DNA from: Lactarius indigo
Lineage: Eukaryota; Basidiomycota; Agaricomycetes; Russulales; Russulaceae
Assembly: GCA_025766275.1 (NCBI GenBank)
Contig: JAFKAC010000025.1
Location: 558,001 to 622,000, forward strand
Direction: 5' to 3'
DNA: 64,000 nt
Of this stretch, positions 3,264-51,272 are shown piece by piece. Positions within the stretch are counted from its first letter, which is position 1; the number at the start of each line of letters is the position of its first letter. The notes beneath the pieces are model-generated. The model saw only the letters and a program-made list of their open reading frames with translations. It searched no databases and was not told where the DNA came from. The position numbers and the translations under genes were made by a program.

Positions 3264-4463
3264 ATGTCTCCTGCGAAATCGTCCCAGGTCGTCGTTGATG
3301 AAGAGACGCCTCTTATTCATGACAGCTATGCACAACGAAAGCCGACACCTTTACCAAACACCCAGCTCTTCCTCCACTTGGTGCGCCTTGAAGAGCTAAT
3401 CATGTCCCATTCCATCAACCCTACATCGACGAGGTCGGTTCCCGTTCATTCGCAACGCACCAGCACTGATATTCCACTTTTGTTCAGCGAGTCAGCGACC
3501 TTTCGATAGTTGGCGGCGACTAGCGGAAAGTGGGCTATTACTCAGGGCTGCTCGTACGTACCGACCACTCGCTTCAGCGCCACTTGCCGCTCACCGACCT
3601 CCAGTGGAGCCGCGTCTCCAACCACATAGGGCGCAAGTCTATCCTCTTATTAGGTCCCGAGGGTTCCGTGGTACCGACGATCCTGTTCGGCCTTTCCCGT
3701 TCCTCCTGTGCCTTGTTCTCAGGCGCGCCCGGCCTCTGCTCACCGCCAGCTCATACGCTAACTTGGCGTCATTCACAGTCGCTGTTTGACCGGCGTCTCG
3801 AATGGCAACCTTGGCGTTATAGTATGCCCGCGGAGCTTGCGGACGAGATCAACGTCGCGCGCGAGTTTTCGTTGTCGCTGACGGCTCGCATGGCTGGTTA
3901 TATAATATGGTTCGACCTGTCTCTATCTTCCCCTTCTACGCTGACGACATTCCGACCTTCGTAGGGGGCGTCTTGTCGCGACCGCAAGATCACTGGCCAG
4001 ATCGCCTCTCTCATCCTTTCTGGGCCAAGTTCCCCTATCTCCTGCCGTGCATCGTGACTGCTGGCTGTGCCCTCATATAATCGTGATAGCGATGTATTTG
4101 GAAGAGGTAGGGCTTTCGAAACTTTTGGGGGGCGAATCGCGGGCTAATACATCATAGAAGAAGAGTGTGACCCAAACTCCAAAACAGGACCCGGAGGGGC
4201 CGCTGCCACTGCGCGCGCTGCTCACGAGACCCGTCCTGGTATCTGTATCCAGCTACGGGATGCTCGATATGGCCGCCATGACGCTCATCCCGCTGGTCTG
4301 GGTGACGCCCGTCGAGCTCGGCGGAATCGACTCTGATCTCGACCCTACGTCCACCGGTATGTGGACGTCCGGATACGGACGTCTGAACGGCCCCGTCCAG
4401 TTCACATCGTTCCCGTGCGTCATCGCGCGTCTCGGACCCGGGCACGTTTTCCTCACCAGCGTC
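3264..4463 (+). pseudogene. MFS transporter copy 1, broken
   Basis: Homologous to the intact copy at 13200-15019. The start MSPAKSSQVVVDEETPL is kept. The WSR..NHIGRK loop (MFS motif A, about 3609-3650), the SRPQDHW block (about 3975) and RALLTRPVLVSVSS (about 4215) follow in order, but frames shift near 3400, 3830 and 4080 and stops intervene. Homology ends abruptly near 4463 after VFLTS, where the sequence switches to the tail of a minus-strand NLR, so the last third of the transporter is absent. The same junction is present in copy 2. Confidence 0.8.
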
Positions 4464-5381
4464 CTCGTTACCTTTTCTGTTGATATTCAAGTTCGCTCGC
4501 GCAACGACCGTGTGGCTGGATCCGAGTGAGATGTGGTGCTGCGCGACACATCCCATCGCAAGCCGGCTCGACATCAGAAACCTCCAGCGTCTACGCGGCA
4601 GTCGTTCGGGCCATGCATCAGTCGGTCTAATCTCCGCAAAATAGCCTCGACATCATTCTCCCAAAATGCTTCTTCCCGAAATTTTCTAGTCACCGCTTTG
4701 AGCGAAAAACGATGTGTCCACGATAGGATAGACTCAATCGTCCCAGCTTGATAGTTGAGTTGCAAGGATAAGGGTAGAAAGGAGCTCAACTTCACGACTA
4801 TCTCAGTCATCACAGTCGCAGGTAGGACTTAAATATAAATGTCGAGGCGTCTCAAAAAGTTTTCAGACGGTTCGAAGAGGTCTAAAATGACATCGTGACA
4901 AGCGCTACGGCCTTGATCGCCTGGGGGTCGTAGATACAAAAACCGCAGGCCGTTCTGGATGCGACTGGTGGATACGTACAACGAGGAGGTCAAAAACCAG
5001 CTAGAATTGCTTTTGCGGACGGAAATAGTTATCCATATCGTAGCGCAGCCACGCAGAACGAAGAGCCAACCAAGGAGCCAACATACCATACCAATACCTT
5101 CTCCAAGCACAGTACTGGTAGAACAGGGTATACAAGATTTGCGCTGTACGCTTGAGCCATTTCGTCACTCTGCTGTCGTAACCTCGATCCTTCCGAAACG
5201 CTTGTGCTTGATATTGAAGCACAGCAATGACGGAACCAGTAGACTCACAATTTTGGAGCTTGAAGACGAGCTCATTTCTGACCAAATTTGTCCCAGTTCG
5301 CTTTACTCGCTCAAGGCAGCCTCGAAGTGATTGAAGGTCAGAAGAAACGTTGAGACCACCGCACCACTGTAAAGCCCGCAA
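4464..5381 (-). pseudogene. Goodbye-domain NLR remnant 1, NACHT deleted
   Basis: On the minus strand, 5330-4830 encodes an N-terminal Goodbye-type domain (fungal STAND N-terminal domain): TGTNLVRNELVFKL, VIAVLQYQAQAFRK, then NFLRRLDIY, and EAILRRLDRL near 4620. Directly after this (4574 onward) comes a stretch matching the post-NACHT region of NLR 2 (HTVVARANLNINR). The whole nucleotide-binding domain is therefore missing. Several frameshifts are present. The 3' end runs into the truncated MFS copy 1. It lies head to head with the 4HB gene at 5778. Established knowledge: Goodbye-NACHT proteins are intracellular receptors of the fungal NLR class. Inference: this copy is non-functional. Confidence 0.75.
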
Positions 5382-5777
5382 AAGTCATCATGGTTTGGAT
5401 TGTTCCCTCAAGCGATTACGTCAGAATCTATCCACATAAGTTACGTACCCAAACTGGGTCAAACGAAAATTACCGTGACACTAGTAGTGCCAGTGCGTGT
5501 GCGCAAACGCATCCAAGTTTATACCATCTCTCTCCTCCAGCCTGAGCCTCTTGGCCAACATCAGCACACTTGATGGAGCCGTTGATTGTCCCAGAACCAT
5601 TGTGTGAGCAGGCTGCCACACGACGCATTTCATAGGCAGTGTCCTAGGATCCGCCGGCGAACAGCCATCGCCTGCCCTTGTACACGTTTTTTTTGCCGCC
5701 GGCGTGGTCCCTCCTAGTTGGAAACGAGGGTGCTCACACCTCTACACCTCCCCATTACCACCGATTCGTCGCCCGTA
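5382..5777. promoter_or_regulatory. shared divergent promoter, unit 1
   Basis: About 400 bases separate the NLR remnant (leftward) and 4HB-1 (rightward). The block is strongly similar to 10681-11061 and, inverted, to 16752-17180. It holds an ATF/CREB-like octamer TTACGTCA at 5416-5423, conserved in unit 3 and changed to TTACATCA in unit 2. A bidirectional promoter role is inferred from position and conservation. Confidence 0.5.
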
Positions 5778-6890
5778 ATGTCGCTCAAACAGTTTTTTCG
5801 CAACTTGAAGCAAAGGACCCGTAAGTCTCGTTCTGCAATGTCTGGTGATCAGGCCCCGCTAGCAGCTCGTAAGTGTTACCTCAGTCACTCCAATACGATC
5901 TTTCTGATTGTTTTTTGCCAGAGGGTACCATCGTCGTTCCCGATCCAGCTTGGCAAATCGACACGCATGACGATATTGCAATGGGCGCGATTCAAACATC
6001 ACTCGCACTTATCAAGGAGGGGAGTTCCCTCGCAACCAAGTTCCCATTCATCGCTCCCATCGCCGGTCTCTTGCTTCAAGCACTCACCATACGCGATGCA
6101 CGTCTTACCCACATTTCCTTTGACCATGTTCTGATAAATGTGTCTCCAGGAAGTGAAGCAATATAAAGGGGAGTGTGAAATCGTGATAGGCAGACTCGCG
6201 AGAATCGCAGGGATCATTGTCGACGTCTGCGAGAAGTATAGCATGAGCGAGGAAGAACTACCGACTACTCTGAGAAATATTCTGAGTTCTCTTCAAAGGT
6301 TCGTCTCTTCGGCAACTATCACGCTTGCTGAGCCTCACGATCTGACGAAGGACCAGAGAGTTGGACAGGATCGGGTGGGTGTTGAAGAAGTGCTCCCGGA
6401 GAAAGGGCATCAAAGGGATGCTTCTACGCAAGGATTTGTTGACGAATATCAGGCAATGCGATGTGGAGTTATCTAATGTGCTTCAAGCGTTCCAGGTACG
6501 CCTTTTTTGCTCACTTACGTCAGTTGGGTGATATATCTCCCTGTAGGCAGAACTGGGATTAGACATTCGGTTTGCGTTGATCGTGCAGAGAAGAGAGGTA
6601 GGCACAGCAATATGAATCAAAACTTGCACAGTTGACACTCTCGCTGCGGCAATAGATCACCACTGACTCTGGTCCAATTGAAGCAACACCGTAAGCTTGT
6701 CTCAGCAGTGTTGATGCTATCGTGTGCAAGGTGCTGATGTGCCCCTCCCTCTAGGTCTATTCCCCAGGAGCCGAATCAGCCGATTGTCCATCCTGGCCAT
6801 CTTTGGACTTTTGGGACTTTAGACCAATCTGATGTAATTAAGTTAGTCAGGCCAAGAGGGGATCAGTGCCGTACACTTTTTTTTTTTTGA
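5778..6890 (+). CDS. MLKL-like 4HB protein, copy 1 (4HB-1)
   Basis: Seven-exon gene: 5778-5868, 5922-6097, 6150-6298, 6357-6495, 6547-6597, 6656-6690 and 6755-6890. The phases join without a break to give 258 residues. The N-terminus is short, basic and polar (MSLKQFFRNLKQRTRKS). Then comes an amphipathic stretch around ASLAL/FPFIAPIAGLLLQAL, EVKQYKGECEIV, a DVCEKY/ELPTTL helix and the LQRELDRIE coiled helix. This is the arrangement of the MLKL N-terminal four-helix bundle (HeLo-like), the membrane-acting part of necroptosis executioners and fungal relatives. No kinase or NACHT domain follows. The second intron uses a GC donor (6098-6099). The last exon ends at a TGA immediately after a run of 12 T. 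The gene is divergent from NLR remnant 1 and may act as effector or adaptor for such a receptor. Function is inferred from fold-type resemblance only. Confidence 0.7.
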
Positions 6891-7278
6891 CCCCCTATCG
6901 TCCCGCCAAACTGTCGTAACGAACGGCATGAACACAGCTTTAAATTAGACACGAACACATTACGTACTTTACCGTAACGCGTTCCTCCCACACCACTGTA
7001 CCCGTTGCACTCCAGTTCTCGAAGTATTGAGGGATGCAACCATTAACAACTTGAACAACAACGACCACCTGTCAACACGCCACGCCACGATGAGGTATCT
7101 TTCAACAGCGCCGCATCCAAGTTCTGACGGTCAAGACCGACTACTGTACATGGGTGGGTCCTACAATGGGCCGCCTGCTACCTGAAGCTAGTGCAGGCCC
7201 TCACTAGAGCTTTTAAGGCCGAGTTACGCTGAGACCCACGGTCCTCATTAAAAACTCTACCCTGCCCGTACATCTCAC
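6891..7278. other. spacer, unit 1 to unit 2
   Basis: No gene is seen. The spacer is 3' flank of 4HB-1 running into the 5' flank of MFS copy 2; the block ending in CTAGAGCTTTTAA just upstream of the MFS start recurs before copy 3. Confidence 0.35.
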
Positions 7279-7950
7279 ATGTCTCCTGCGAATTCGTCCC
7301 TGGTCGGCATCGATGAAGAGACGCCTCTTACCCATGGCGGGGTGTATGGCGAAAGCCGACACCTCTACAAAAGACCCAGCTCTTCCTCCTTCTCTTGGTG
7401 TGCCTCGCAGAGCCAATTGCGCCCTATTCCATGAGCACCTACATCAACGAGGTGGGTTCACGTTCATCCGCGACAAACTGACACTTATACTCTACTTTTC
7501 TGCGTTCGGCTTGCGAGCTGCCTTTCGATCGCCGGTGGCGATAAGCGGGAAGTGGGTATCACATATGGATGCACTTACACACCTCTACTTACTTCGGCAC
7601 CAGTGGCTACCGTCCACTGAACACAGAGGGCGCAAGCCCATCCTCGTATTGGGTCTCGCGATCGCAAAATCACTGGCCAAGTCGACCCTCGCACCCTTTC
7701 CGAGCCGAATGCCTATATTTCCTCCCGTGCACCGCGGCCGCTGCCACTGCACCCACTACTCACGAGACAGGTCCTGGCGTCGGTATCCAGCTCCAGCTAC
7801 GCGATGCTCGGCGGGCCCGACCCCAACTCGGCGTCGATCGACCTGTGGATGTCTGGATACGGGTGTATGAACGGCCTCGTCTATTTCACATCGTTCCTGT
7901 GCATCGTCGCTCATCTGTGACCCGAGCGCGTCGTCTGCCTCACAAGCGCC
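7279..7950 (+). pseudogene. MFS transporter copy 2, internally deleted
   Basis: The start (MSPANSSL...DEETPL) and the first helix region are recognisable. The reading then jumps from the GRKPIL loop (about 7629) almost directly to the SRDRK/ITGQ block, and on to LLTRQVLASVSS and DLWMSGYGCMNGLV (about 7840). Large internal segments are therefore missing and frames shift. Like copy 1, homology stops at the LTS block (about 7945) and fuses tail to tail with a minus-strand NLR. Confidence 0.75.
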
Positions 7951-10680
7951 CTTGATTTTATTTTTGTTGATATTTTCGTCAAGCTGCAGCAGAACGGAAA
8001 GGCACGCTCGCGCAACGATCGTATGGGCGCGACGCTGGGCAGGTTCGAGTGAGACGTGATATCGCGAGACACATCCCCTCGCAAGCCAGCTCGACATTAG
8101 AAATTCCTTTGCCGAAAAGTGGGAAAAGTGGACAATTTGTGAACCATCCACGGTAACGACAGCTATCGAGCTAGAACATGTAGAAAACACAACACCACCA
8201 GAATATTTCGGCCGTGGAGACGAGACCAATGTGGGTGTTTCCCCGGCGTCGAAATCGAGCGCATTCTCTCTGTGGCTCGACCCGAAGCGGTCTGGAAGCC
8301 ACGGCGATGCGCTGGAAGAGGCGGTGGGAATACGTCCAGTGTTTCATTTCTTCGTCAATATCCTGCCATGAGTCTTGGTATGTCTCGTCCAACGTTCCAG
8401 GTAATTCGTCTAACGTGCGCCAGATGCGTCCCGGAAGGATTGACATAGCTTGTCCAGTCGACAGTACACTGTAAGTACGTATTTACGACGATCACCCCAG
8501 ACAGAGAACGTCCGACCCTTCCTTAAATCTGTGGTCTTATTTTAGAATGTGCACAACGCCATGCGTATATCCAAGTCCCAGACGGACGCATATATAAGAC
8601 GACCCTCATCACTTTGGGTCGTTAGTCTCTCTTTCCCTCTTCCCATCACCTTTCGTGTATCCTCAGAACCGCTCTGGGAATTCCCGATCATTTGGAATAT
8701 ACCAATTTCTACGTTTCCGCGCGATCGACCTGGTAATCCGGCCGACCTCCACACACCCACCGAAATGTCGTAGGATCCTGTTAGAAAGGGCAGACACGGA
8801 GATACAGAGCGCCTCGCATTCCGTCAGCATTTTAGCAGAGCTGATCTATCACGAAGTTTCTTTCTTCTTCTTTCCGTCGGCTCGGGTGGGAGGCAAAGGT
8901 AAGAGAACGGCCCGGATGTCCTAGGGCGACTGGTAACGCACAGATGCAGACGTGAATGGTTGAGGTTGACGAGGTCCTTCACGAGAACCAGAACCCTTTC
9001 GCGAGCAGACAGTATACCAGAAGTTCTCGAGCATTCGTCGAGCGCATCAACTATAATAATATACGTCGAATCGAGGGTAGCAACAGTCTAAGATTGCTCC
9101 ATCGCCAGGCTGTAGAGAGCTATATCATATATCGAATACAGGTGGGAAAGGACGTCGTAGCACTGGTCGAGCCGAGCACAGATCTGAACAAGAAGAGAAG
9201 CCACAAAGCCACGGCGATTCTGTTTCTCTTCGTCCCTAAAGTCAAAATAGAAGAAGGCCATCGAGGCCAGTCCAGCCTCTTGCGTAAATCCGACGTAGCT
9301 GATGACTGTTGAGCTAGCGGGTGACAAAAGTACGATATCATCCAAAGATCTGCATACCAGAGAACGCTCTTCCCAGAGCCCGCTATAGAACTGAGACACT
9401 ATCAGCGGTCATCTGGTACAAACTGGGGTAAAGGGTACCCACATTTTCCATGAATCCATAATACGAATCCCCTCCTTTGTCACTCTAGAAATGCGACACC
9501 CTAGATAAACCAGGTCGTAGTGCCATCATGGTGAACGTCGCATGCAATGTTGTAGTTTTTCGGTGGATCTGGAGGAGAAAGTCAATTTCGGGATTTCTCT
9601 AGTGACTGGTCACTTCTTCATCTCATGCTGTGAGGAGCTACGACCGCGGAGAGACAACGAACATTTTGCTTTGCTCATATTGCTCGCGATGTCCTGTAGG
9701 ATCACTGGGAGTACATCCATACTCGAATTCCATCAGTGAAACAAACACACGGAGGGCTGTGCGGATGTCTTTCACTGGGGATGCCTTTTCGTCTAGGAAA
9801 TATATATAAGCGCTCATAAAGTCGAGTCAGAGAAGCAAACGAACACGGCCCACCATACATGAATAACCTCACATTCTCCACAGCCTCATGCGTCAGTCTG
9901 TCCAATCTCCGCAGAATACCCTTATCATCGTTCTCCCCAAAAAGCTTCTTCCCAGCCTTTTTATTTACCGCCTTGAGCGAAAAACGACGTGCCACTAAGA
10001 GATAGGCTTATTCAATCGTCCCTGCTTGATCTGTTGAGTCGCGAGGGCAAGGGTAGCAAGGAGTTCAACGAGAATCTTGACGACTATCTCAGTCATCGCA
10101 GTCGTAGGTGGGATCTTGGCATAAATATCGAGGCATCTCACGTTTTCAGACAATTCGACAAGGTCCAAAATGGCATCGTAGATGGCGCTAACATCCTTGA
10201 TCGCCCGAGGCTTGCAGATATAAAAACCATTCTGGAAGGAACTGGTGGGTACATACGGCAAGGAGAATTCCGAAACAAGCAAGAATCGCTTTCGTGGGCG
10301 GTAGTGGCGACATGTATTGTAGCGTAGCCGTGAGGAAAGAAGAACCAACAAACTACCCGGGCCAGACCAATACCCTCTCCAAGCACGGTAATGGTAGACA
10401 GTGTATACAAGATTTGCACTGTCCACTTGAACCATTTCATCACTCTGCCGTCGTTGCCTCGATACTTTTGAAATCCTTGCGCTTGATATTGAAGCACAGC
10501 AATGACGGAACTAGCAGACTCACAACTTTGGAGCTTGAAGACAAGCTCATTTCCGATCAAATTTGTCCCAGCCCGCTTCTCGTACTCGCTCAAGACAGCC
10601 TCGAAGTGATTAAAAGTCAGAAGAAACATTGAGGATATCGCACTACTGTAACTTAGAGCCCGCAGAATCATCATGATCAT
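7951..10680 (-). pseudogene. Goodbye-NACHT NLR remnant 2 (most complete receptor copy)
   Basis: Minus-strand order: Goodbye domain at 10640-9990 (FEAVLSEYEKRAGTNLIGNE, VIAVLQYQAQ, VLGEGIGL, then ILRRLDRLTHE near 9930). A NACHT domain follows with Walker A AGSGKSVLW at about 9385-9355, FFYFDFRDEEKQ (about 9250), Walker B IIIVDALDEC (about 9060-9030) and CVTSRP (about 8945-8930). Next is the winged-helix-like tail LDELPGTLDETY..HRLFQRIAVASRPLRVE (8410-8290), FSHFSAKEFL (about 8120) and a last helix LLQLDEN near 7990. Walker A and FFYFDF lie in different frames, stops occur near 9088 and elsewhere, and no repeat (ankyrin/WD) domain follows. Known role of the family: self/non-self sensing ATPases. 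This copy is a pseudogene unless the sequence contains errors. Confidence 0.8.
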
Positions 10681-11061
10681 GGTTTGGATTGTTCCCTCAA
10701 GCGATTACATCAGAAACTATCTATATTAAGTTACGTACCTGATCCGGGCCAAACGAGAATTATTGTGACACCAGTAATGCGTGTGCGCAAACGCATTCAA
10801 GTTTATATCATCCCTCTCCTCGAGCCTGAGCCTCTTGGCCCACGTCAGCACAATTAGGTGGAGCCGTTAGGTGTCCCAGAGCCAACATTTTGCGAGTGGG
10901 CTACCACACGATGCATCTCATAGGCAGTGTCCTAGGAAATCTGTGAACAGCTATCAGCTGCCTGTGTACCTTTTTTTTGGCGCTGCGGCTGTTCCTTCTA
11001 GTTGGAAACGGAATTCCTCATACCTCTGCACTTCCCCATCACCACCGATTCTTTGTCCATA
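10681..11061. promoter_or_regulatory. shared divergent promoter, unit 2
   Basis: Intergenic block between NLR 2 and 4HB-2, collinear with 5382-5777. The octamer site reads TTACATCA (10705-10712), one change from the TTACGTCA in units 1 and 3. Confidence 0.5.
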
Positions 11062-12205
11062 ATGTCGTCTAAACAGTTTTTTCACAAGTTGAAGCAAAGG
11101 ACCCGTAAGTCTCGTCCTGCGATGTCTGATGATCAGGTCCCACTGGCAGCTCGTGAGTATTAACTCGGTTAGGAGCTACCACGATACGATTTTCTGATCG
11201 TTTTTGGCCAGAGGGCACCACCGTCGTCCCTGATCCAGCTTGGCAGATCGACGCGCATGTGATTGGTGCGATTCAAACATCACTCGCACTTCTCAAGGAA
11301 GGGAGCTCGCTGGCAACCAACCTCCCATTCATCGCCCCCATCGCTGGTCTCCTACTTCAAGCACTAACCATGCGTGATGTACGTCTTACACACATTTCCC
11401 TTGACAATGTTCTGACGAATACGTCTCCAGGAAGTGAAGCAATATAGAGGGGAGTGCGAAATCGTGATGGGAAAACTGGCCAGAATCGCAGGGATCATAG
11501 TTGATGTCTGCGAAAAGTACGACCTGAGCGAGGAAGAACTACCGAGTACTCTGCTGAATATTCTGAGTTCTCTTCAAAGGTTCGTCTCTTCTGTGCCCAT
11601 CGCACTCGCTGAGCCTCACAATCTGACGAAGGACCAGAGAGTTGGACAGGATAGAGCAAGTGTTGAAGAAGTGCTCCCGGAGAAAGGGCATCAAAGGGAT
11701 GCTTCTACGCAAGGATCTATTGACGAATATCAGGCAATGTGATGTGGAGTTATCTAACGTGCTTCAAGCGTTCCAGGTACGATCCCTTTTGCTTATTCGT
11801 GTCAGTTGGGTGATATATCTTCCCGTAGGCTGAACTTGGATTGGACATTCGGTTTGCATTGATTGTGCAGACTCGGAGAAGAGAGGTAGGCACAGCAATA
11901 TGAATTAAAACTTGCACGGTTGACATTCTCGCTGCGGCAATAGATCACTACAGACTCTGACCAAATTGAAGCAACACCGTGAGCTCTTCTCAGAAGTGTT
12001 GGTAGTATCGTGTGCTGATGTGGCCTCTTCTAGGTCTATTCTCAAGGAGCCGAATCAGGCGATTGTCCGTCCTGGCCATTTTGGGACTTCTTTAGACCAC
12101 GTAATTATTCAGTCGAAAGATCGCCCAATCAGTGCTGTGCCCTTTTTTTTTTTCACCCCTATTTCTTTTTTTGACTGTACCACTCCGGCAACACGGCTCG
12201 TGTAA
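11062..12205 (+). CDS. MLKL-like 4HB protein, copy 2 (4HB-2)
   Basis: Exons 11062-11152, 11212-11378, 11431-11579, 11638-11776, 11829-11885, 11944-11978 and 12034-12205 join in phase to 269 residues. The layout equals copy 1: basic start MSSKQFFHKLKQRTRKS, hydrophobic helix FIAPIAGLLLQAL, EVKQYRGECEIV, EKYDLSEEEL, ELDRIEQVLKK, then DIRFALIVQ. A few codons after QIDAH are deleted relative to copies 1 and 4, and two extra codons (Thr-Arg) lie in exon 5. The second intron has a normal GT donor. The reading frame passes through a run of 11 T (Phe-rich) before its stop. The gene is divergent from NLR 2. 4HB assignment is by pattern; a cell-death effector role is inference. Confidence 0.7.
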
Positions 12206-13199
12206 GTAATGGACCGGTAGACGCAGCAAAGCACTGTACTGCACAAGGTACTGTAATGTTGCAAGAACGTGCATGACGTTATTGTAACACGCTCCTGTTA
12301 TCATCACTCCTCTAGAATCAGGCTTGGTTTGACGAGTTGTGGTCCTGGATCTAACTGGATGGCGTCGCACTCCAACTCTTGAAGTGTTGAGGGCCACAAC
12401 GATCAACAACGACAGCGGCCACTGGCCAATACGCCAAGACGGAGGTGTTTTCCAACAACCCCGCCCAAGTTCAAGACTGGTTGCATGCTGCCGGGGTCGG
12501 CGTTGGGGATGGCAAAGGGCGGGGATGGGACTGAGCCATCGTCTGTTGTAAGGGCCCTTTCTCATTCGTCGCGCATAATGGGGCATTCGAACGGGGTGCG
12601 CAAAGGGGGGGTATATTACAAACGGCGTTCGCCTACTATAGCGCTCACTAGTGGATTCGAGGGATGAAGGCGCGAGGGTCACGGAATTGCATTCCGACGT
12701 GACCAACTCGAAGAACAAGAAGATACAACCGATACAGTAATTTGTATATTCTGCCGTACTGTATCCACCTCTTCGGCACTAAGTCCATTATCAAGTTACG
12801 TATGTGCTTCCCCTTCAATGTACCCTCCGACCATGGCTCCATGGCCTGCTATCCTGTATTGCATTAATCAGCCCATCATCAATCAATCCATCGAATTGTA
12901 ACTGATGGCGAAAGCAATAAAGGAACCGTGGTGGAGCCGGTTCATAGGGGCTCCACGAGAAGAGGATGACTAGAGGACGCTATTCTTAGCCCGGGCCGGC
13001 TGAGCCAATTGATTATGTTGGCATGCGCACATTTCTTTAGACCAATAGCAAGCGGACATCTGACCCCAAAGCACAAATGGCTCCCGGAGCATCTACAATG
13101 GGCCGCCTACTACCTGAAGCTATAGCCGGTCCTCACTAGAGCTTTTAATGCCGAGTCATGACCAGTCGTCCTGATTAACGACACTAACCCCATCCCCAC
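12206..13199. other. spacer, unit 2 to unit 3
   Basis: About 1 kb without a convincing gene. It is collinear with 22952-23435 plus 24403-24840, where the LINE element is inserted, so it serves as the empty-site version of that insertion. A minus-strand frame of 208 codons across 12092-12718 has no family resemblance and overlaps the 4HB-2 end. Confidence 0.5.
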
Positions 13200-15019
13200 A
13201 TGTCTCCTGCGAAATCGCCCCAGGTCGTCAATGATGAGGAGACGCCTCTTCTCCACGATAGTGGTGCACAGCGAAAGCCGACACCGTTGCCCAAGACCCA
13301 GCTCTTCCTCCTTCTCTTGGTGCGCCTCGCAGAGCCCATTGCGTCCCATTCCATCAGCCCCTACATCAGCGAGGTAGATTTTCCGCTGATTTGCGATGCA
13401 CTGGCACTGATTCTATTGTTGCGTTCAGCTTGTCAGCGACCTTTCAATTGTCGGCGGCGACAGGCGGAAAGTGGGGTATTACACGGGGCTGCTCGTACGT
13501 ACCGTCCTACTACGTCTCGGCACCAACAATGGCCGCTCACCGAATTTCTATGCCCAGATGTCCCTACATTATGCCGCTGAAGCTGCCACTGTCCTCCAGT
13601 GGAGCCGTTACTCCGATCACATAGGGCGCAAACCAATCCTCTTATTGGGTCTCGCGGGCTCGGTGGTATCAACAATCCTGTTCGGCCTTTCCCGTTCCTT
13701 CTGGGCGCTTGTCCTCAGGTGCGCGTGACTGCTGCCCTATGGCAGGCCCTCATACAGTACGCTCACCCTCGCGTCATTCACAGTCGCTGTTTGAACGGCG
13801 TCTTGAATGGCAACCTCGGCGTCATAAAGAGTATGATCGCGGAGCTCACGGACGAGACCAACGTCGCGCGCGGGTTTTCGTTGTTGCCGATGGCTCGCGC
13901 GGCTGGTTATATGATAGGGTTCGGCGTTTCGCCTTATCTCTCTCTTCCCTTCCGCCGCTGACGACATCCTGGAACCATTAGGCCTTTCATTGGTGGCGTG
14001 TTATCGCGACCGCAAGATCACTGGCCAGATCGCTTCTCACATCCTTTCTGGGCCGAATACCCATATTTCTTACCGTGCCTCGTGGCCGCTGCCTATGCAC
14101 TCTTATCATTTGTCGTGACAGCAATATATCTAGAAGAGGTAAGCTTCCTAAAACTTTTGGGAGAGAATCGCGGGCTAATACGTCATCGTCGGAAGACGTT
14201 AGAACCCAACCCTACGCCAAAGGTCCAATCTGCGAAGACCAATCTAGACATAGTATCCCAGAAGAAGAGTACGACGAGCCAGGCCCCGAAGCAAGACCCG
14301 GAGGGGCCGTTACCCCTGCGCGCACTGCTCACGAGACCCGTCCTGGTATCAGTATCCAGCTACGCGATGCTCGCGCTGCTCGACATGGCCGCGATGGCGC
14401 TCATCCCGCTCGTCTGGGCGACGCCGGTCGAGTTCGGCGGGCTCAACCTCAACCCGGCCTCCATCGGCCTATGGATGTCCGGATACGGGTGTCTGAACGG
14501 CCTCGTCCAATTCACCCTATTCCCGCGCGTCGTCGCGCGTCTCGGACCCGGCCGCGTGTTCCTCACCAGCGTCGCGGCGTACGTGATCATCTACACCATG
14601 TTCCCATTCGAGAACCTCGCGGCGCGCGCGAAGAGCACGACTGTCTGGTTACTCGTCGCGCTGCAGCTCGCGTCGATATGCATCACCGATATGGGTTTCA
14701 GTGAGTCGTTTTTTTTTTTGTCTCTCCGTGATTTCGCTCCGTCGCTGACGAGCGCCCAGACTCGGTGTTCATGTTTATTGCCGCTGCCGCGCCGAATAAG
14801 CGCTCGCTTGGCGCCACGAATGGACTTGCTCAGACGGTGGTCGCCGTGCAGCGCATGGTCGCTCCTGCCGCGGCGGCCTCTCTGTTCGCGTTCTCCCTCG
14901 CCAACGACATATTGGGAGGTAACTTCACATACGTCGTGTTGTTGACCGTGGTATGCTTTGGGCTCGGCGTCGCGGCGCAGCTGCCGCGTCACACATGGAG
15001 GCATGGAGAGGGCAAGTAG
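13200..15019 (+). CDS. MFS transporter, intact copy (MFS3)
   Basis: Six exons, 13200-13373, 13429-13494, 13558-13718, 13784-13918, 13982-14700 and 14760-15019, join in phase to 504 residues, the usual size of a 12-helix major facilitator. The protein has a dileucine-like acidic N-terminus (EETPLLHD), motif A WSRYSDHIGRKP at about residues 95-106, the helix-4/5 block CLNGVLNGNLGVIKS, and IGGVLSRPQDHWPDRF. A hydrophilic central loop of about 60 residues (KTLEPNPTP...) precedes LLTRPVLVSVSSYAML and the C-terminal helix set ending GLGVAAQLP. This arrangement is that of the fungal ZRT/TPO-like MFS general transporters near ascomycete and plant ZIF1-type proteins. The substrate cannot be told. It is the only one of six copies without a visible lesion. 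Confidence 0.85.
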
Positions 15020-15553
15020 ACGACTAATGGATGGATTTTGTACGCACATGAGACGTTCCCTCGGATGTATAACAATACTAGTATCATATACCTTTTGTAA
15101 GATATAATGATGATGACGTCTTCTCGTCAGTGGTGGTAGGGATGCGGCGCTGCGTGGTGCACTGACCCCAGGTTTCCTCCTCAATCTAGATTTTGGAGCA
15201 GTGTGGTAATGTTCGGTGATCTGGTTAGCGTATGATCGTCGATGTGTGTATAGTACAGCTTAACCCATACCCTCTCCGTGGACTGTCTGTGCTATGGGTT
15301 ATAGGTTTTGAGAGGTTTGCTATGGCCCACAAACGGATTTTGGTGGATGGATCGGCCATGAGTTATCAGGGGACATGGGTTATCAGAGCTATGGGTTCAG
15401 CCGGGTTCAAGTTGTTTACAATGCCGGTCCCAGTTTAATTTATTTCATAAGCGAAATTAAGTCCAGAATCGGCAATCGCTACAGTTGTAAGCTAAGTTAA
15501 GGTTAAGTCGACCCGGTGCGAGATGCCTGTCGACCATTATCGTTAGACCCTGC
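15020..15553. other. spacer, tail-to-tail between MFS3 and 4HB-3
   Basis: 3' flanks of two convergent genes. The AT-rich stretch GTATCATATACC at about 15080 recurs after MFS copy 4 (about 20165), marking a shared 3' flank of MFS copies. No gene is seen. Confidence 0.4.
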
Positions 15554-16751
15554 TTAGTAAGGGGTAAAAAAAAAAAAAGGTGCAGAACTGATTTTCGGCT
15601 GGCTAGAGCGCTTAATTACGTCAGACTGATCTGAAGAAATCCCAAAACGGCCAGGATGGACAACTGGTTCCTTGGCAGTCGACCTGCCACCGTGACTCCA
15701 AAGGGTTTCCAAGGCACCTTTAATACCCCAAAATATCTGTGCAGTATTTAACTTCTGAAGGATAGGCCTATATGATGCTACATCAGCACACAATACTATC
15801 TCGCAACACCGCTGAGAAGAGCTTACGGTGTTGCTTTAATGGGCCCGGAATCAGCGGTAATCTATTGCAATAGTGACAGTGTCAGCCATGCAAATTTTAA
15901 TTCACATTTCCATGCCCACCTCTCTTCTCTCCACAATCATTGCAAACCGAATGTCCAATCCGAGTTCGGCCTACAGGGAGATATGTCACCTGAGTGACAC
16001 GAATAAGTATAAGGCGCACCTGGAACGCTTGGAGCACGTTAGATAATTCTACATCGCATCTCTTGATCCTCGTCAACAGATCCTTGCGTAGAAGGAATCC
16101 TTTGATGCCCCTTCTCTTCGAGCACTTCTGCAGCACCAGCTCGATCCTATCCAGCTCTCTGGTCCTTCGTCAGATCGTGAGGCTCAGGGAGTGTGATAGT
16201 CACCGGAAAGACGAACCTCTGAAGAGAACTCAGAATATTCCGCAAAGGACTTGGCAGTTCTTCCTCGCTCAGATTATACTTTTCGCAGACATCGACAACG
16301 ATCCCTGCGATTCTCGCGAGTTTTCCTAACACAATTTCGCACTCCCCTTTATATTGCTTCACTTCCTGGAGGCGCATTCATTAGAACATCGTCAAAGGAA
16401 ATATGTGTGTAAGACGTGCATCGCGCATGGTGAGCGCTTGAAGTAGGAGACCGGCGATGGGGGCGATGAATGGGAGGTTGGTTGCCAGCGAGCTCCCCTC
16501 CTTGAGAACTGTGAGCGATGTTTGAATCGCATTCATAGTAATGTCGTCATGCGGGTCGATGTGACAAGTTGGATCGGGCCCAGGGATGACGGTGGTACCC
16601 TCTGGCAAGAAACGATCAGCAAATAGCATCGTAGTGGTTCCTAATTGAGGTAATACTTACGAGCTGCCAGTGGGACCTGATTGCCAGACATTGCAGGACG
16701 AGACTTACGGGTCCTTTGCTTCAAGTCGTGAAAAAACTGTTTGGGAGACAT
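15554..16751 (-). CDS. MLKL-like 4HB protein, copy 3 (4HB-3, inverted)
   Basis: Minus-strand exons 16751-16661, 16601-16420, 16365-16217, 16158-16020, 15970-15920, 15861-15827 and 15767-15554 join in phase to 286 residues. It shares the basic start MSPKQFFHDLKQRTRKS and the same helix blocks as the other copies. Two extra codons (GP within VIPGPDP) lie early in exon 2, and the C-terminal exon is longer (AQIFWGIKGALETLW), like copy 4. The second intron has a GC donor, as in copy 1. The frame reads through 12 T (minus sense) to its stop. It is divergent from NLR remnant 3, so the receptor/4HB pair is preserved but flipped relative to units 1 and 2. Confidence 0.7.
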
Positions 16752-17180
16752 TATGGACAATGAATCAGTGGTGAGTGGGAGGTGCAAAGGTATTGGTATC
16801 TTCGTTTCCGCATGGAAGGAACGGTCCTGGCGGCAAAAAAAACGCATACACAGGCAGGCGATAGCTGTCAAGATGCTGTCCGCAGGCGGATTTCCAAGGA
16901 CACAGCCTACGAGATGCACCATGTGGTAGCCTGCTTGCACAATGTTGGTTTTGGGACACCTGACAGCTCTACCTAATGTATTAACGTAGGCCAAGAGGCT
17001 CAGATTCGAAGAGAGTGATAAAAACTTGAACGTCATTTGCGCATACACCCGGGCCGGTGGTTTGGGTACAGGTGCAGTACAAGATAATGGTTCTGACGTA
17101 ATCACTTGGGAGGAACTGAACATGATGTCTGCTGGCCTTAGCGCGGTGTCTTCGACTGTTTCTTCCAACTTTCAATCACC
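16752..17180. promoter_or_regulatory. shared divergent promoter, unit 3 (inverted)
   Basis: Inverted counterpart of 5382-5777. It carries TGACGTAA at 17094-17101, the reverse complement of the unit 1 octamer TTACGTCA. The flanking text (CAGCCTACGAGATGCACCATGTGG) aligns with unit 1 and unit 2 when reversed. Confidence 0.5.
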
Positions 17181-18050
17181 GTGATTTTGTTGACTGTCAT
17201 TTCTGTGCTTCGTGACCAAGCACAATCATTCCGAAAGTATCGAGGTGACGACAGGCAAAGGCTCGGGGGGACAGTGCATATCTTGTATACCTTGTCTACC
17301 AGTACTGTGCTTAGAGAGGGTATTGGTCTGGTATGTTGGTTCTTCTTTCTGCACGCCAGCTACGCTGCCACATGTGTAGCATTGCTGCCCGTAAAAGAAA
17401 TTCTCGCTGGTTTCGGAATTCTCCTCGTTGTATGTATCCACCGGTCACGTCCAGGATGTTCTTCTGTTTTCATATCTGCGACCCTCAGGCGGTCAAGGGC
17501 GTTACCGCTGAGTACGATACAATCTTGGACTTCTTTTTTGAATTGGAAAAATTCCTGACGCACCTCTATATTTATACCAAGGTCCCACCTATGATGGCGA
17601 TAGCCGAAATAATCGCGGAGATTCTTGTCGAACTCCTTGCCACCCTTGCCCATGCCACTCAAAAGATCAAGCAGGGACGATAGAGTGAGTATAACTCTTC
17701 GTGGGCGCGTCGTTTTTTTCTCTAGGCGATTACCAGAAGGGTTTGGGAAGAACCTTTTTGGGGAGGTGATGTCAAGGCTAATTCTGCGGAGATTCGATCC
17801 ACTGACGCCGCATGAGGAGGCCCAAACGACTGCCGCGCAAACATTGGAGGTCGTCTACGCCTTGTGAAGAATATGAGGGTAGGGTCATGGATGACGGGCC
17901 GCGTTCGTTCGCTTCTTCAACTCGTACTCGACTTGATGAGCACTTATCTTTGTTTCCTAGACGAAAAACCATCCTCGGTGAACGACGTTCGACTAGCCCT
18001 GGGTGTGTTTGTTTCACCTGTGGAAATTTGCGCAATTTGGGTGTGGTTCC
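17181..18050 (+). pseudogene. Goodbye-domain NLR remnant 3
   Basis: The plus strand carries the Goodbye domain: ISVLRDQAQSFRKYRGDD (about 17200), VHILYTLSTSTVLREGIGL (about 17275-17330) and ILAGFGILLV (about 17400). The PTYDGDSRNN/AEIIAEILVELLATLAHATQ part follows (about 17600), then ILRRFDPLTPHEEAQTTAAQTLEVVY (about 17785-17860). Frames switch repeatedly. Homology ends near 18050, where the sequence joins the 5' flank of MFS copy 4, so NACHT and everything after it are gone. Confidence 0.75.
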
Positions 18051-18406
18051 ATGGCCTCCATTACTCCGTATCATGTTTGTCACTCCATCAATCGAATCGC
18101 CGAATTGTAAAGACAAGGCAATACGGAAGTCATGGTGGACCGCTCTCGAGAAAGGGTGTTGTTATTCTTGGCCCGGGCTGGCTAATCCAATTCCACATCG
18201 ACATGCACAAATTTATTGAGACAGTCGTAAACGAACATCTGACCCCAAAGCAAAGTGGCATTACGGTTATCGCCGGAGTCGGAGCACCTACAATGGCCGC
18301 CTGCTACCTGAATCCATATCCGTGAGTCAGCCGTGAGTCACTAGAGCTCAGAAGCCGAGCTACGCTGAGACCCATTAACAACTCTTCCCCACCCCCAACT
18401 TTCCAC
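18051..18406. other. 5' flank of MFS copy 4
   Basis: Non-coding; collinear with the flank at 12840-13199 (blocks GGCTCCACGAGAAGAG-like and CATCTGACCCCAAAGC). No gene is seen. Confidence 0.4.
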
Positions 18407-20092
18407 AAGTCTCCTGTTAAATCGTCCCAGGTCGGAGCTGATGAGGAGACGCCCCTTCTTCGCCATGGCGGAGCACAGCGAAAGCCGACGCTGCTGCAGA
18501 AGGCCATCTCCTCTTCCTTCTTTTGGTCCACCTCGCAGAGCCAATTGTGTCCCATTCCAACGGCCCCTACCTCAGCGAGGTCGATTTCCCATCGATTTGC
18601 GACGTACTGGTACTGATATTCTACTTCACTGCATTCAGCTTGTCAGCGACCTTTCGATCGTCGACGGTGACAAGCGGAATGTGGGTATTGCATAGGGATG
18701 ATGTTCGTGCGAATTGTCTACTCGCCAGTCTCGCCTCGGCACCAGCACTTGCTCATCGAATGTCCCAGATATCCCTACATTATGCTGCCGAAGATGTCAC
18801 CATCCACCAGTGGAGTCGTTGCTCTGACCACGTAGCGCGCAAGCCCATCCTCTTATTGGGTCTCACGGGCTCGGTTGTATCGACGATCCTGTTCGACCTT
18901 CCATGTTCGTTGAACTTCGTTCTGGGCACTTTCCCTCAGGTGCATGTGACTGCCGCTCACTGCAGGCCTATTCGCTAACTTGGCGTCATAAAGGGTATGA
19001 TTGCGGAGCTGACAGACGAGACACCGTCGCGCGGGGGTTTTCGTTGTTGCCGATGGCTCGCGCGGCCGGTTATATGATAGGGTTCGGCCTATCTCTTTCT
19101 TCCCCTCCTTAATAACGACATTCTAGAACCTTCAGGCCTTTCATCGGTGGCGTCTTATCACGACCGCAAGATCACTGGCCAGATCGCTTCTCGCACCCAT
19201 TCTGGGCCGAATACCGATATTTCTTACCTTGCCCCGGCGGCTACCTATGCCCTCATCATTCTTCGTGACAGAGACATATCTTCCCGAGGCTTTTGGGGGC
19301 GATCTTGGGCTAATACGTCATCGTCGGAAGATGTTTGAACACAACCCTACAACAAAAGTCCAGTCTGCGAAGACTGATCAGGACATTATATCGCAGAAGA
19401 AGAGTGCTAGCCAGGCGGCGCCGCCCCGAAGAAGGACCCGGAGGAGCCGCTACCGCTACGCGCCCTGCTCACGAGACCGGTCTTGGTGTCGGTATCCAGG
19501 CTGCGCGATGCTCGGCATGGTCGCCATGACGCTGATCCCGCTCGTATGGGTGATGCCCGCCTAGTTCGGCGGGCTCAACCTCAACCCGGCCTCCATCGAC
19601 CTGTGGATGTCTGAATGGCATTGTCCAGTTCGCCCAGTTCCCGCGAGTCGTGCGCGTCTCGGACCTGGCCGCGTGTTCCTCACCAGCGTCGCGGCGTACG
19701 TGATTATCTACATCATGTTCCCGTTCAAGAACCTCGCAGCGTGCGCGGAGATCACGACTGTTTGGTTACTCGTCGTGCTGCAACTTGCGTCCATATGCAT
19801 CAAAGACATGGGATCCAGTGAGTCGTTTTGTTTCTCTTCGTGGACATCTAGACACGGTGTTCAAGTTCATAGCTGCCGTGCCGAATAAGCGCTCGCTCGG
19901 CGCCACGGACTCCTCAGACGGTGGTCAGCGCATGGTCGCACCTGCCGCTGCGGCCTCTCTGTTCGCATTCTCCCTGGCCAATGACATATTAGGAGGTTAC
20001 TTCCATTACGTCGTGTTGCTAACTGTGGTGTGCTTTGGGCTGGGCGTCGCGGCAGCTGCCGAGTCACATGGAAGCATGGGGAGGGCAAGTAG
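18407..20092 (+). pseudogene. MFS transporter copy 4, start codon lost
   Basis: Nearly full-length relative of MFS3 with the same exon blocks. The codon at the MFS3 start position is AAG (18407-18409) instead of ATG, and an in-frame TAG occurs at 19562-19564 where the intact copy reads VEFGG. Small deletions lie near 18990 and 19610-19640. The final exon (IAAVPNKRSLGAT ... GLGVAAAAESHG) is still readable. Too many lesions to encode a transporter. Confidence 0.85.
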
Positions 20093-20509
20093 ACGACGAA
20101 CCAATGGCTTTGTGCGTACATGATACATTCCCTCGATGACGATATTCAGGTGTATAATAGTACAAGTATCATATACCCTTTGTAAAATATAATGATATCT
20201 CGTCAATGGCCAGCGGCGGGAGGTAACGATGTGGTGCTAGGTGGTGCGCTATCCCAGGGCGTACAGGGTTTACTTCTCGACCCGGATCTCGGGGTAGTGT
20301 GGTATAGTTCAGGTAAACCAGGTGTGACCAGGCGTTTCGAGACCGGTTGGAGACAGGTTGATACGCTTTCCTCCTGCCTACAGATGTATGGCACATTAGA
20401 GGTGCAACACTGTTGCAATTCGTACCATGGGGTCGCGTTCTTTCTAATCACGTAGAACAAGCTTGTCTTCGTCCCAAATTTCCAATCTCTTGCCAGTTTA
20501 CAGTATAAC

Positions 20510-21300
20510 AGTGTCAGAATGCGACTCCTAAGAATTACTCTCCCAATGCGTGCTCCCAGGTATCCCTCGGAAGTTGTATTTCTACGCACAGTGAGACGCC
20601 TATGAGGAAATGTAAAAATATCGATCGAGACGACAGTCTGCGCGAAGCCATTCGTAGCGCCGAACAACCGCTTATCGGCGCCGCGGAAGAGAACACGCCG
20701 AACCCCATGTCAGAAATGGAGCGTGATAAGGGCTGCAACACGACGAGCGGCCACACGAGCCAGCACGTTCTCAAACGGAAATAGGACGTAGATCGCGGCG
20801 AACGCAGTCGCGCCAGTTACGACTACGCGCCCTGGGCCAAAACGCGCGACGAAGCGCGGGAAGAACGCAAACTAGAAGACGGAGAGCGCACTCACGCATG
20901 GGGATAGCCATAGACTGATAGAGGTTGAAGTTAGGTCGAGTCTGCCGAGCGCAATGAGCGCAGAACATACTCGTGGCATGAGCCCCCCAACAATGACGTC
21001 CAGCAGGGCGAGCAAGGCGTAGTTTGCGACGGACTTTAGTAGCGCGCATAGTGGCTGTGATTGCTCGGCATCCTCCTCAAATCGTGAGATCGCCCTCTCG
21101 GGGAAACTGTCTCCGTTGTCGTCCGCAGAGCGACTTATTGGTGAGGACCTGCGATTCACGGTCTTAATGACGGATCAATGCGTTATCGTATTGCTCAAGG
21201 ATTAAAGAGCCTGGACCTACCTCTTTGAAGAATATGGCGGTGAGGGTGAGCTGTGTAAGGAGAAGACAGATACCATCAGATGTGACCCATATGGTGTGGC
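20510..21300 (-). pseudogene. MFS transporter copy 5, minus-strand fragment
   Basis: Reading leftward: central-loop remnant, LLKSVANYALLALLDVIVGGLMPRV (about 21040-20960) matching LLTRPVLVSVSSYAMLALLDM, then LVVLQPLSRSISDMGF (about 20735-20690), NGFAQTVV (about 20640) and a C-terminal QLPRDTWEHALGE (about 20570). Only the second half of the transporter is represented, frames are inconsistent, and divergence from MFS3 is greater than that of copies 1-4. Confidence 0.65.
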
Positions 21301-21796
21301 GAGAAGTATGGGTCAGAGGAGCCTCCTGCGGTCGTGGAAGACACTAGGGGTTTTCAAAATTGCCGCAGCGGGCCGATCCAAGACCGATTCGATGTTTCCG
21401 GGCACTTGTCGCTGGTTTGCCAAGAGTTCGAACCGATCGGGTTAAATCTTCACTCCAACAACCCACACTGACGATGCAAATACAGCTTGAAGCGGTGCGC
21501 TAACCCGATTTTATCCCTCTTTTCGAGCCTCAAGCTCATGGCTTGCATCAGTACATTAAGTAGAGCTGTTGAGTGTCTCAGAACTGGCATTACCGAGTCT
21601 TCAAGAGCGCTATGTAGGCTACCGATATATCAGAGGCACTGTCCTAGGAGAACCGCAGGCGAAAAGCTACTATCGCCTGCCTGTGTACACCTGCCTGTGT
21701 ACACCTTCCTTTTGACGCCGGGGCTGTCCCTACTGGTCGACAATGAGGGTGCATACACCTTTCCATCTCCCCATTACCACCAATCTTCTCTCGAGC
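21301..21796. promoter_or_regulatory. 5' flank of 4HB-4
   Basis: The right part (from about 21500) resembles the promoters of the other 4HB genes (a CCTCTTTTCGAGCCT-like block, then CTGCCTGTGTACACC). The left part joins the MFS fragment directly, so the divergent NLR partner of this unit is missing. The octamer TTACGTCA is not seen. Confidence 0.4.
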
Positions 21797-22951
21797 ATGC
21801 CATTCAAACTGTTTTCTCGCAAGAAAAGGACCAGCCTTGCAACGTCTCAGGCTGACGATCGGCCTCCGGCTCGTTAGTATTTCCTAGGAGCCACAATGAT
21901 ATAATTTTCTGATTGTTTTTGGCCAGAGGGCACCACCATCGTCCCTGATCCAGCTCGGCAAATCGACACGCATGACGATATCACTATGAACGCGATTCAA
22001 ACATCGCTCGCACTTCTCAAGGAGGGGAGTTCCCTTGCAACCAAGTTCCCATTCATCGCCCCCATCGCCGGTCTTTTACTTCAAGCACTCACCATGCGTG
22101 ATGTACATCTTACCCGCATTTCCTTTGACAACGATCTGATGAATCCGCCTTCAGGAAGTGAAGCAATACAAAAGGGAGTGCGAAATCGTGATGGGAAAAC
22201 TCGCGAGGATCGCGGGGATCATCGTCAATGTCTGTGAAAAGTATAACCTGAGTGAGGAAGAACTGCCGAATACTCTGCGGGATATTCTGAGTTCTCTTCA
22301 AAGGTTCGTCTCTTTCGTGACTATCGCGCGAGCTGAGCCTCACGATCTGACGAAGGACCAGAGAGTTGGACAGGATCGAGAGGGTGCTAAAGAAGTGCTC
22401 GAAGAGAAAGGGTATCAAAGGGGTGCTTCTACGCAAGGATCTGTTGACGAATATCAGGCAATGTGATGTGGAGATATCTAACGTGCTTCAAGCGTTCCAG
22501 GTCCGCATTTTGCTCGTTCGTGCGGTTGCATGATATATCTCCCTGTAGGCTGAACTTGGATTGGACATTCGGTTTGCATTGATCGTGGAGAGAAGAGAGG
22601 TGGGCGCACCAACATGAGTTAAAACTCGTGGCACGGCTGACACCCTTACTGCTGTAATAATAGGTCACCATCGACTCTGGCCCAATTGGCGCAATGCCGT
22701 AAGCTCTTCTCGTTTGCAAGATACTATCGTGTGCTGATATCGGATCTTCTAGGTGCCTTCCTCCGAAGTCGAGTTCTGCAGAGATGTTTTGGAGCGCCTT
22801 GAATGCTCTTTGGGGTGTCAGGTTGAATAGGAAGGAAGCGATTGTCGGTCCTGGGCAATTTGGGACTTGTTTAGATCAGTCCAACGTAAATAGTCAGCCG
22901 AAGATCGCGCAATCAGTGCTGTACACTTTTTTTTTTTTTACCCCTGAGTGA
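21797..22951 (+). CDS. MLKL-like 4HB protein, copy 4 (4HB-4)
   Basis: Exons 21797-21872, 21927-22102, 22155-22303, 22362-22500, 22549-22599, 22664-22698 and 22753-22951 join in phase to 274 residues. The helix blocks match the other copies (FPFIAPIAGLLLQAL, EVKQYKRECEIV, NVCEKYNLSEEEL, ELDRIERVLKKC). The N-terminus is shorter and different (MPFKLFSRKKRTSL) but still strongly basic. The C-terminal exon contains SSAEMFWSALNALWGVRL, related to 4HB-3 rather than to 4HB-1/2, and reads through 13 T. The gene stands alone, with no NLR beside it. 4HB assignment by pattern; effector role inferred. Confidence 0.7.
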
Positions 22952-50965: not shown

Positions 50966-51272
50966 TCGCACTACGATACTATCTAGCAACCATTGTCGTG
51001 GTTATCATGCGGTTATCACGCCTACTTTCGTTTGGGTTCGCCGCCGAAGTAAGAGAGTGTAGAACTTTGTGATGTAATTGATTGGAATATACTGTAGTTT
51101 GTCGCCTCAAGACTTCGTGGCGGACGACTCGTGAGGATATACAGCCCGGAAAGTACAATCCCTTGAGACAATTGTTACTACTAGTAAAGATGCGGCGATG
51201 ATACAGCCAAAGGTGCGGCGATTGACGGAATCCGGCCCGTCTCTTCCGGTGTTGTTCTTTCTTGTTCTCGAC

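What the first reader, a model, noticed from the sequence alone, without database searches (positions are those of the whole stretch)
4464..22951. Repeated head-to-head pairs of a Goodbye-NLR and an MLKL-like 4HB gene; the 4HB gene survives while the receptor decays
Seen: three units have NLR and 4HB starts facing each other across a conserved block of about 400 bases, and a fourth 4HB gene stands alone. All four 4HB genes keep the same seven exons and open frames (258, 269, 286 and 274 residues), although the NLRs have lost NACHT or frame and five of six MFS copies are broken. Known: ascomycete NLRs are often encoded beside HeLo-domain cell-death effectors (NWD2/HET-S), and MLKL-type 4HB domains permeabilise membranes. 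Inference: this may be a basidiomycete receptor/effector pair system in which the effector is retained under selection, perhaps serving an NLR elsewhere in the genome.
Basis: partly seen in the sequence, partly recalled or inferred. Interest (0 to 1): 0.85.

Follow-up and report, generated by a model that had tools for sequence, protein, structure and literature searches.

The report
Amplified death-domain genes beside broken receptors
A milk-cap mushroom has multiplied a small gene that probably makes a membrane-damaging helical protein, inside a DNA segment that carries only parts of the neighbouring immune-receptor and transporter genes, so the small gene is kept while its neighbours decay.

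Summary
In detail: four seven-exon 4HB genes (258, 269, 286, 274 residues), three facing Goodbye-NLR remnants. The genome matches Lactarius indigo. The window holds 4 of 7 array copies of contig C168; C226, probably the other haplotype, has 6.

Six array copies share one MFS|NLR junction, so the amplified unit held part of an NLR gene, a whole 4HB gene and part of an MFS gene. The 4HB domain is under purifying selection (dN/dS 0.13-0.23 in the window, median 0.17 over 78 array pairs; NLR pieces 0.54, MFS 0.40); its tail is nearly free (0.45-1.09). The low-confidence fold resembles plant CC/RPW8 and MLKL bundles.

A lasting receptor/effector pair is not supported. A second pair (C270:773) has an NLR of another lineage without stops and a 4HB with a stop. 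The best array NLR carries one premature stop on both contigs. Best-hit lists of other species show no linkage (120 rows each). Best reading: a Lactarius family of standalone BaMLKL-like effectors, controlled in trans, organised like plant RPW8/HR clusters; the mechanism is inferred.

The parts
5778..6890 (+). 4HB gene u1, seven exons (5778-5868, 5922-6097, 6150-6298, 6357-6495, 6547-6597, 6656-6690, 6755-6890), 258 aa; intron 2 has a GC donor
   Evidence: NCBI model P0029 (233 aa) on the 779417-base contig differs in its first exons
11062..12205 (+). 4HB gene u2, seven exons, 269 aa
   Evidence: no published model of it was recognised among the hits read
15554..16751 (-). 4HB gene u3 (inverted unit), seven exons, 286 aa; intron 2 has a GC donor
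   Evidence: NCBI model P0078 (322 aa) retains intron 4
21797..22951 (+). 4HB gene u4, seven exons, 274 aa; no NLR remnant found upstream
   Evidence: NCBI model P0072 (205 aa) retains intron 3
4482..5384 (-). NLR remnant of u1: Goodbye pieces with stops and frame changes, internal deletion; ends approximate
7950..10700 (-). NLR remnant of u2: searched Goodbye pieces open, NACHT region damaged, cut off before the ankyrin repeats at the shared junction; the 5' end is approximate
17160..18045 (+). NLR remnant of u3: partial Goodbye and linker
4463..4482 (.). shared MFS|NLR junction (u1 unit), position approximate; a further NLR deletion follows
   Evidence: alignment of six copies
7948..7950 (.). 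shared MFS|NLR junction (u2 unit)
3234..4463 (+). MFS copy 1, truncated at the junction, stops and frame changes
7169..7948 (+). MFS copy 2, truncated at the junction, internal deletions and stops
13101..15110 (+). MFS copy 3, longest copy, searched coding pieces open
18403..20195 (+). MFS copy 4, nearly full length in DNA, frame broken
20767..21042 (-). MFS fragment 5, with a stop
24845..25611 (.). MFS fragments 6, pieces on both strands

Best explanation
This is an array of standalone four-helix-bundle proteins of the MLKL/CC (BaMLKL-like) kind in Lactarius indigo, amplified together with truncated neighbours. Shown: in six copies the MFS sequence is fused at one shared junction to a truncated Goodbye-NACHT-ankyrin NLR gene, so the unit [5' NLR part | 4HB gene | 5' MFS part] contains one complete gene, the 4HB gene. 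Its domain (exons 2-5) is kept by purifying selection, its C-terminal tail is almost free, and the NLR and MFS pieces decay. Inferred: that the units multiplied by tandem duplication after the fusion; that the 4HB proteins are membrane-acting cell-death or defence effectors, held inactive as soluble bundles and triggered in trans by receptors or kinases encoded elsewhere, so that linkage to one NLR is not needed; and that C168 (7 copies) and C226 (6 copies) are the two haplotypes.
For: Shared junction in six copies, five on C168 and one on C226. NLR DNA lies divergently upstream of 6 of 7 copies on C168 and 4 of 6 on C226. dN/dS in exons 2-5: 0.127-0.231 for the 6 window pairs, Fisher p 1.0e-8 to 4.2e-14; median 0.17, maximum 0.33 for 78 array pairs. 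The same measure on Goodbye pieces of 8 places gives a median of 0.54 (25 of 28 pairs; 3 dropped by the script's filter of under 30 shared codons or zero dS) and on MFS pieces of 10 places 0.40 (45 pairs). 17 of 18 copies examined have no stop in the aligned parts of exons 2-5. Tail dN/dS 0.45-1.09 in 10 pairs of five copies. The 4HB family is found across Lactarius: 181 and 215 proteins, all species names among the 120 listed of each being Lactarius. Pfam MLKL_N is the most frequent weak match, 15 of 40 members at E<=1, best E 0.0013. Natural structure neighbours are Rx-CC, NRG1 CC-R, NRC2, Cbl and the MLKL N-domain.
Confidence: 0.6

Rival explanations
1. A true receptor/effector module: the Goodbye-NLR and the 4HB gene share a divergent promoter, and the NLR switches on its neighbour, as proposed for NWD2 and HET-S. 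The array is a graveyard of copies around one working pair (C226:298), and C270:773 is a second such module.
For: C226:298 has a 4HB gene with exons 2-5 open facing a nearly full Goodbye-NACHT-ankyrin gene. Two NLR lineages stand head to head with the same 4HB family. By uniform density only 0.015 to 0.065 such cases would be expected among 9 other 4HB loci (the 9 loci, alleles merged, and 300-1300 Goodbye loci are my estimates, and NLR clustering would raise the figure).
Against: Both alleles of the array NLR carry the same in-frame stop in the ankyrin region and differ at dN/dS 0.90, though on few changes. On C168 the 4HB next to this NLR appears deleted. At C270:773 the 4HB has a stop. The tail of the 4HB matches only 4HB genes, no NLR N-terminus (10 of 10 matches). 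The nearest NLR relatives lie on contigs without any 4HB match. No shared contig outside L. indigo in the listed hits.
Confidence: 0.2
2. The 4HB proteins are not killers but regulators or decoys, for example inhibitors that bind the helical Goodbye domain of NLRs, or plain scaffold proteins; the copies are kept for dosage.
For: Both partners are helical domains; Cbl bundles, among the structure neighbours, serve in adaptor proteins (role recalled).
Against: No sequence relation between the 4HB and the Goodbye N-terminus (hhalign probability 1.6, reversed control 2.8); no test of function available, so this is weakly excluded at best.
Confidence: 0.15
3. Nothing selected in the present: a recently expanded, mostly dying cluster whose low dN/dS reflects selection before the duplications or gene conversion from one active copy.
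For: Tail nearly neutral; GC donors in 7 of 18 copies; several published models retain introns.
Against: Window pairs have dS about 0.4 with dN below 0.1, so the copies have diverged long under constraint; 17 of 18 keep the aligned parts of exons 2-5 free of stops while many NLR and MFS pieces of the same units do not.
Confidence: 0.1

Closest known systems
BaMLKL singletons (standalone MLKL_NTD-like domains of basidiomycetes; Wojciechowski et al. 2022, PMC9815663; section 28 and passages read)
   Same: Small basidiomycete proteins with one MLKL/HeLo-type helical bundle and no nucleotide-binding domain; the paper reports hundreds of them and expects control by other proteins.
   Different: Here they form amplified arrays with part of an NLR and part of an MFS gene. 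The paper's CDD and HHblits assignment could not be repeated here.
HET-S/NWD2 and other HeLo-STAND gene pairs of ascomycetes (PMC3321046, passages read)
   Same: Effector with a helical bundle beside a NACHT receptor gene, divergently transcribed in some species.
   Different: There the receptor N-terminus repeats the motif of the effector tail; here the receptor starts with Goodbye and no shared motif was found. Here the receptors are truncated or replaced.
RPW8/HR cluster of Arabidopsis and the unlinked NLR RPP7 (PMC6684095, passages read)
   Same: MLKL-like bundle proteins in a copy-number-variable cluster with a variable C-terminus, interacting genetically with NLRs on another chromosome.
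   Different: No genetic partner is known here, 21- or 14-residue C-terminal repeats were not seen in the tails read, and the organisms are unrelated.
Goodbye domain (PF17109)
   Same: N-terminus of the neighbouring NLRs; reported to be structurally similar to HeLo/MLKL domains (PMC9815663, passages).
   Different: No detectable sequence relation to the 4HB family in a profile comparison.

Membership tests
MLKL/HeLo/CC four-helix-bundle superfamily | four-helix bundle fold like the MLKL N-domain, RPW8/CC or HeLo | tested here: inconclusive
MLKL/HeLo/CC four-helix-bundle superfamily | profile match to PF22215 MLKL_N over its cut-off | tested here: not met
   15 of 40 members match weakly, best E 0.0013, listed without its score; of 10 members scanned singly 6 match, with 13.2 to 16.4 bits against a cut-off of 27. 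Whole-genome scan with the family: no match, but the controls were silent too. u1 and u4 do not match it.
MLKL/HeLo/CC four-helix-bundle superfamily | membrane insertion or cell-death activity | not testable with these tools
   none
BaMLKL (PMC9815663) | CDD MLKL_NTD or overlapping HeLo-like/Goodbye-like annotation | not tested
   CDD and HHblits databases are not on hand
HET-S/NWD2-type receptor/effector pair | adjacent genes for a bundle effector and a NACHT/STAND receptor | tested here: met
   near-full pair at C226:298; NLR remnants at 9 other array copies; C270:773. The bundle fold itself is inconclusive (above).
HET-S/NWD2-type receptor/effector pair | amyloid motif shared between effector C-terminus and receptor N-terminus | tested here: not met
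   u3 tail of 61 residues against the own genome: 10 matches, all in 4HB genes; very short motifs could be missed
HET-S/NWD2-type receptor/effector pair | pairing conserved between species | tested here: inconclusive
   59 contig lengths with 4HB and 89 with related NLRs (best 120 listed each, typed by hand; unnamed metagenome rows of the 4HB list left out; the NLR list also holds Russula, Multifurca and Lactifluus) share one, from L. indigo; DNA of other species was not available
Goodbye-NACHT-ankyrin NLR (neighbour gene) | Goodbye, NACHT and ankyrin domains in one gene | tested here: met
   C226:298 pieces read (no full splice model); relatives P0122 (Goodbye 8e-18, NACHT 5e-8) and P0227 (Goodbye 5e-19, NACHT 8e-9, Ank). 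The u2 Goodbye pieces alone score 17.4 bits, under the 24.8 cut-off.

The most novel reading that the evidence does not exclude
A fungal counterpart of the plant RPW8/HR system: a copy-number-variable cluster of standalone bundle effectors with a fixed killing domain and freely varying tails, which has escaped from its ancestral head-to-head receptor by an amplification that left the receptor behind, and now serves as a shared executioner pool for unlinked Goodbye-NLRs in a genome that has very many of them.
Probability: 0.25. Interest if true: 0.8.

Novelty: new variant of a known kind. Interest (0 to 1): 0.5.

Why it matters
Standalone MLKL-like proteins of basidiomycetes are known from sequence, and I saw no functional test of one in the papers found here. 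This locus offers a natural contrast, effector kept and receptor lost in the array beside receptor kept and effector broken at C270:773, that would show whether such effectors need a linked receptor. It also warns against reading repeated head-to-head pairs as repeated selection: here at least six come from one shared junction, and the neighbours were already truncated in the unit that was copied.

Tried and rejected
Considered and rejected: (1) head-to-head pairs in the array as independent recurrences: rejected because six copies share one junction. (2) The 400-base block as a specially conserved bidirectional promoter: not above intron identity. (3) An amyloid-type link through the 4HB tail: no NLR N-terminus matched and the tail is hardly constrained. 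(4) Homology of the 4HB to the Goodbye domain of its neighbour: none seen by profile comparison (87 of 120 NLR N-termini used, 33 dropped by my P-loop and length filter). (5) Co-divergence of the C270:773 pair with the array pair: rejected, since the NLRs differ at dS 1.36 or more (60-79 codons) against 0.57-0.67 for the 4HB genes, and the array NLR ranks 54th of 121 entries as a relative of the C270 NLR. (6) Unusual allelic divergence of the 4HB genes: whole stretches around the same pairs differ by 5-9% too.

Led nowhere: Foldseek with the first 291-residue model; PDB sequence searches; NCBIfam; whole-genome MLKL_N search. HET-S HeLo structures were not among the 50 VIA rows shown. Literature: searches for Goodbye/NLR/basidiomycete/MLKL, Lactarius with NLR/NACHT, NLR/gene cluster/HeLo, Russulaceae NLR, Lactarius indigo genome, RPW8/HeLo/MLKL, MLKL tandem arrays and BaMLKL listed no paper on this locus; listings were capped and the library holds open-licence papers only. 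PMC12258605 and PMC12881547 were read as passages only.

Not done: dN/dS used 18 copies; further 4HB places (C117:33, C270:720, C243:303/305/310, C2, C110, C215, C223, C268) were left out because their DNA was not all fetched or they are more distant. The Goodbye profile was built from sequences of this genome starting from the window's own and may miss distant Goodbye domains.
Full report
What is there. Intron 2 of u1 and u3 has a GC donor. GC occurs there in 7 of the 18 copies examined, and published models of u1 and u3 splice at it (P0029, P0078). u1, u2 and u3 face NLR remnants; none was found for u4. Published Lactarius indigo proteins lie on contigs of the same lengths as C168, C226, C270 and C243. 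C168 holds the window; C226 carries a homologous array and is probably the second haplotype (inferred: compared array stretches match at 91-98%, and C226:254-264 kb matches the window at 89%).

Genome-wide picture. A search of the own genome gave 99 exon matches on 10 contigs. The array has 7 copies on C168 (4 in the window) and 6 on C226. Blast with the NLR gene of C226:298 finds NLR DNA, divergently placed, upstream of 6 of 7 copies on C168 and 4 of 6 on C226 (at C226:288 only 71 bases). So the head-to-head arrangement is probably ancestral to the array.

How the array arose. In u1, u2, C168:532, C168:537, C168:542 and C226:292 the MFS sequence breaks at the same place and continues into the same place of the inverted NLR gene. 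The repeated unit is therefore about the first 2.7 kb of the NLR gene, the whole 4HB gene and about the first 1.5 kb of the MFS sequence. The ankyrin repeats and the MFS 3' end were missing from these copies when they were made. This alone would make the 4HB gene the survivor. Tandem duplication as the process is inferred. u3 is inverted, and u4, C226:270 and C226:276 carry no NLR hit.

Selection. For exons 2-5 (up to 172 codons) the six window pairs give dN/dS 0.127-0.231, with Fisher p from 1.0e-8 to 4.2e-14. The 78 array pairs have median 0.171 and maximum 0.325; all 153 pairs of 18 copies have median 0.198 and maximum 0.339. These pairs are not independent and include alleles. Goodbye pieces of 8 NLR places give a median of 0.54 (25 of 28 pairs; 3 dropped by the script's filter) and MFS pieces of 10 places 0.40 (45 pairs). 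The 4HB tail (exon 7, five copies, 10 pairs) gives 0.45-1.09. Against a simple reading: introns differ less (0.215) than synonymous sites (0.398), and frames would stay open by chance in 9% of neutral copies at distance 0.2.

Is it a receptor/effector pair? The best array NLR (C226:298) reads as Goodbye-NACHT-ankyrin but has an in-frame stop in the ankyrin region. Its C168 allele (97.7% over 4,520 columns) has the same stop, and the 4HB beside that allele appears to be gone: the matching intergenic stretch runs into an MFS fragment and the MFS|NLR junction. At C270:773 the opposite is seen: an NLR with no stop in any of seven searched pieces and a 4HB with a stop in exon 3. That NLR is of another lineage: its best of 121 entries scores 813, the array NLR 538 at rank 54. 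Other 4HB loci with upstream DNA in hand (C270:750/C117:16, C270:767/C117:33, C243:303, C243:305, C243:315, C223:349/C268:141) showed no Goodbye. The nearest NLR relatives lie on C24, C284, C13, C130, C113, C248 and C244, none of which holds a 4HB match. In the listed hits, 59 contigs with 4HB and 89 with related NLRs share one, from L. indigo. The 4HB-MFS linkage, by contrast, is seen in L. pseudohatsudake as a fused gene model: P0242 carries a 4HB and a stretch 89% identical over 144 residues to the MFS copy at 13962-14945. The name MFS itself rests on a weak MFS_1 match (E 0.0014) in the like model P0244 and on recall.

Mechanism. Shown: a unit with one complete gene, constraint on its bundle, free tail, decay of neighbours. 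Inferred: the bundle is a membrane-acting effector triggered in trans. [quoted passage not shown] The nearest family is the BaMLKL singletons (PMC9815663, section 28 and passages); there, amyloid-like fragments were seen in only a few of about 500 sequences and in no neighbouring NLR. I put 0.6 on this reading and 0.2 on a true linked pair.

Noticed in passing
window 53217-55139 and 57456-59405, +: Two long reading frames of 640 and 649 codons with DUF6535 (E 6e-41 and 6e-44), apparently a tandem pair.
   Followed up: no
window about 30100-36900 and 42000-51100: Both stretches match C226:254-264 kb at 85-89%, so the right half of the window seems to contain a large direct duplication of several kb, with 325-codon frames at 32374 and 45257.
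   Followed up: no
P0241 (L. psammicola), P0242 (L. pseudohatsudake), P0244 (L. indigo contig of 779417 bases): Published models fuse two 4HB genes or a 4HB gene with MFS sequence downstream; probably annotation fusions, but they suggest that tandem 4HB genes and the 4HB-MFS order exist in other species.
   Followed up: partly
last exon of 4HB genes, e.g. window 6863-6890, 22920-22951: A poly-T tract at or near the stop codon gives a C-terminal run of F in most members of alignment A1; unclear whether protein or DNA is conserved.
   Followed up: partly
intron 3 of the 4HB genes, e.g. window 6299-6356: The 3' half of this 58-base intron is nearly the same in 17 of 18 copies (c243_315 departs), and the published model of u4 retains it.
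   Followed up: no
own genome: Goodbye domains are very numerous: 967 candidates in the first look with PF17109, of which only 150 were scored; 138 matches passed.
   Followed up: no
window 23410-24105, +: Open frame that looks like the end of a non-LTR retrotransposon (recalled; no Pfam match at E 0.01), just right of u4.
   Followed up: no
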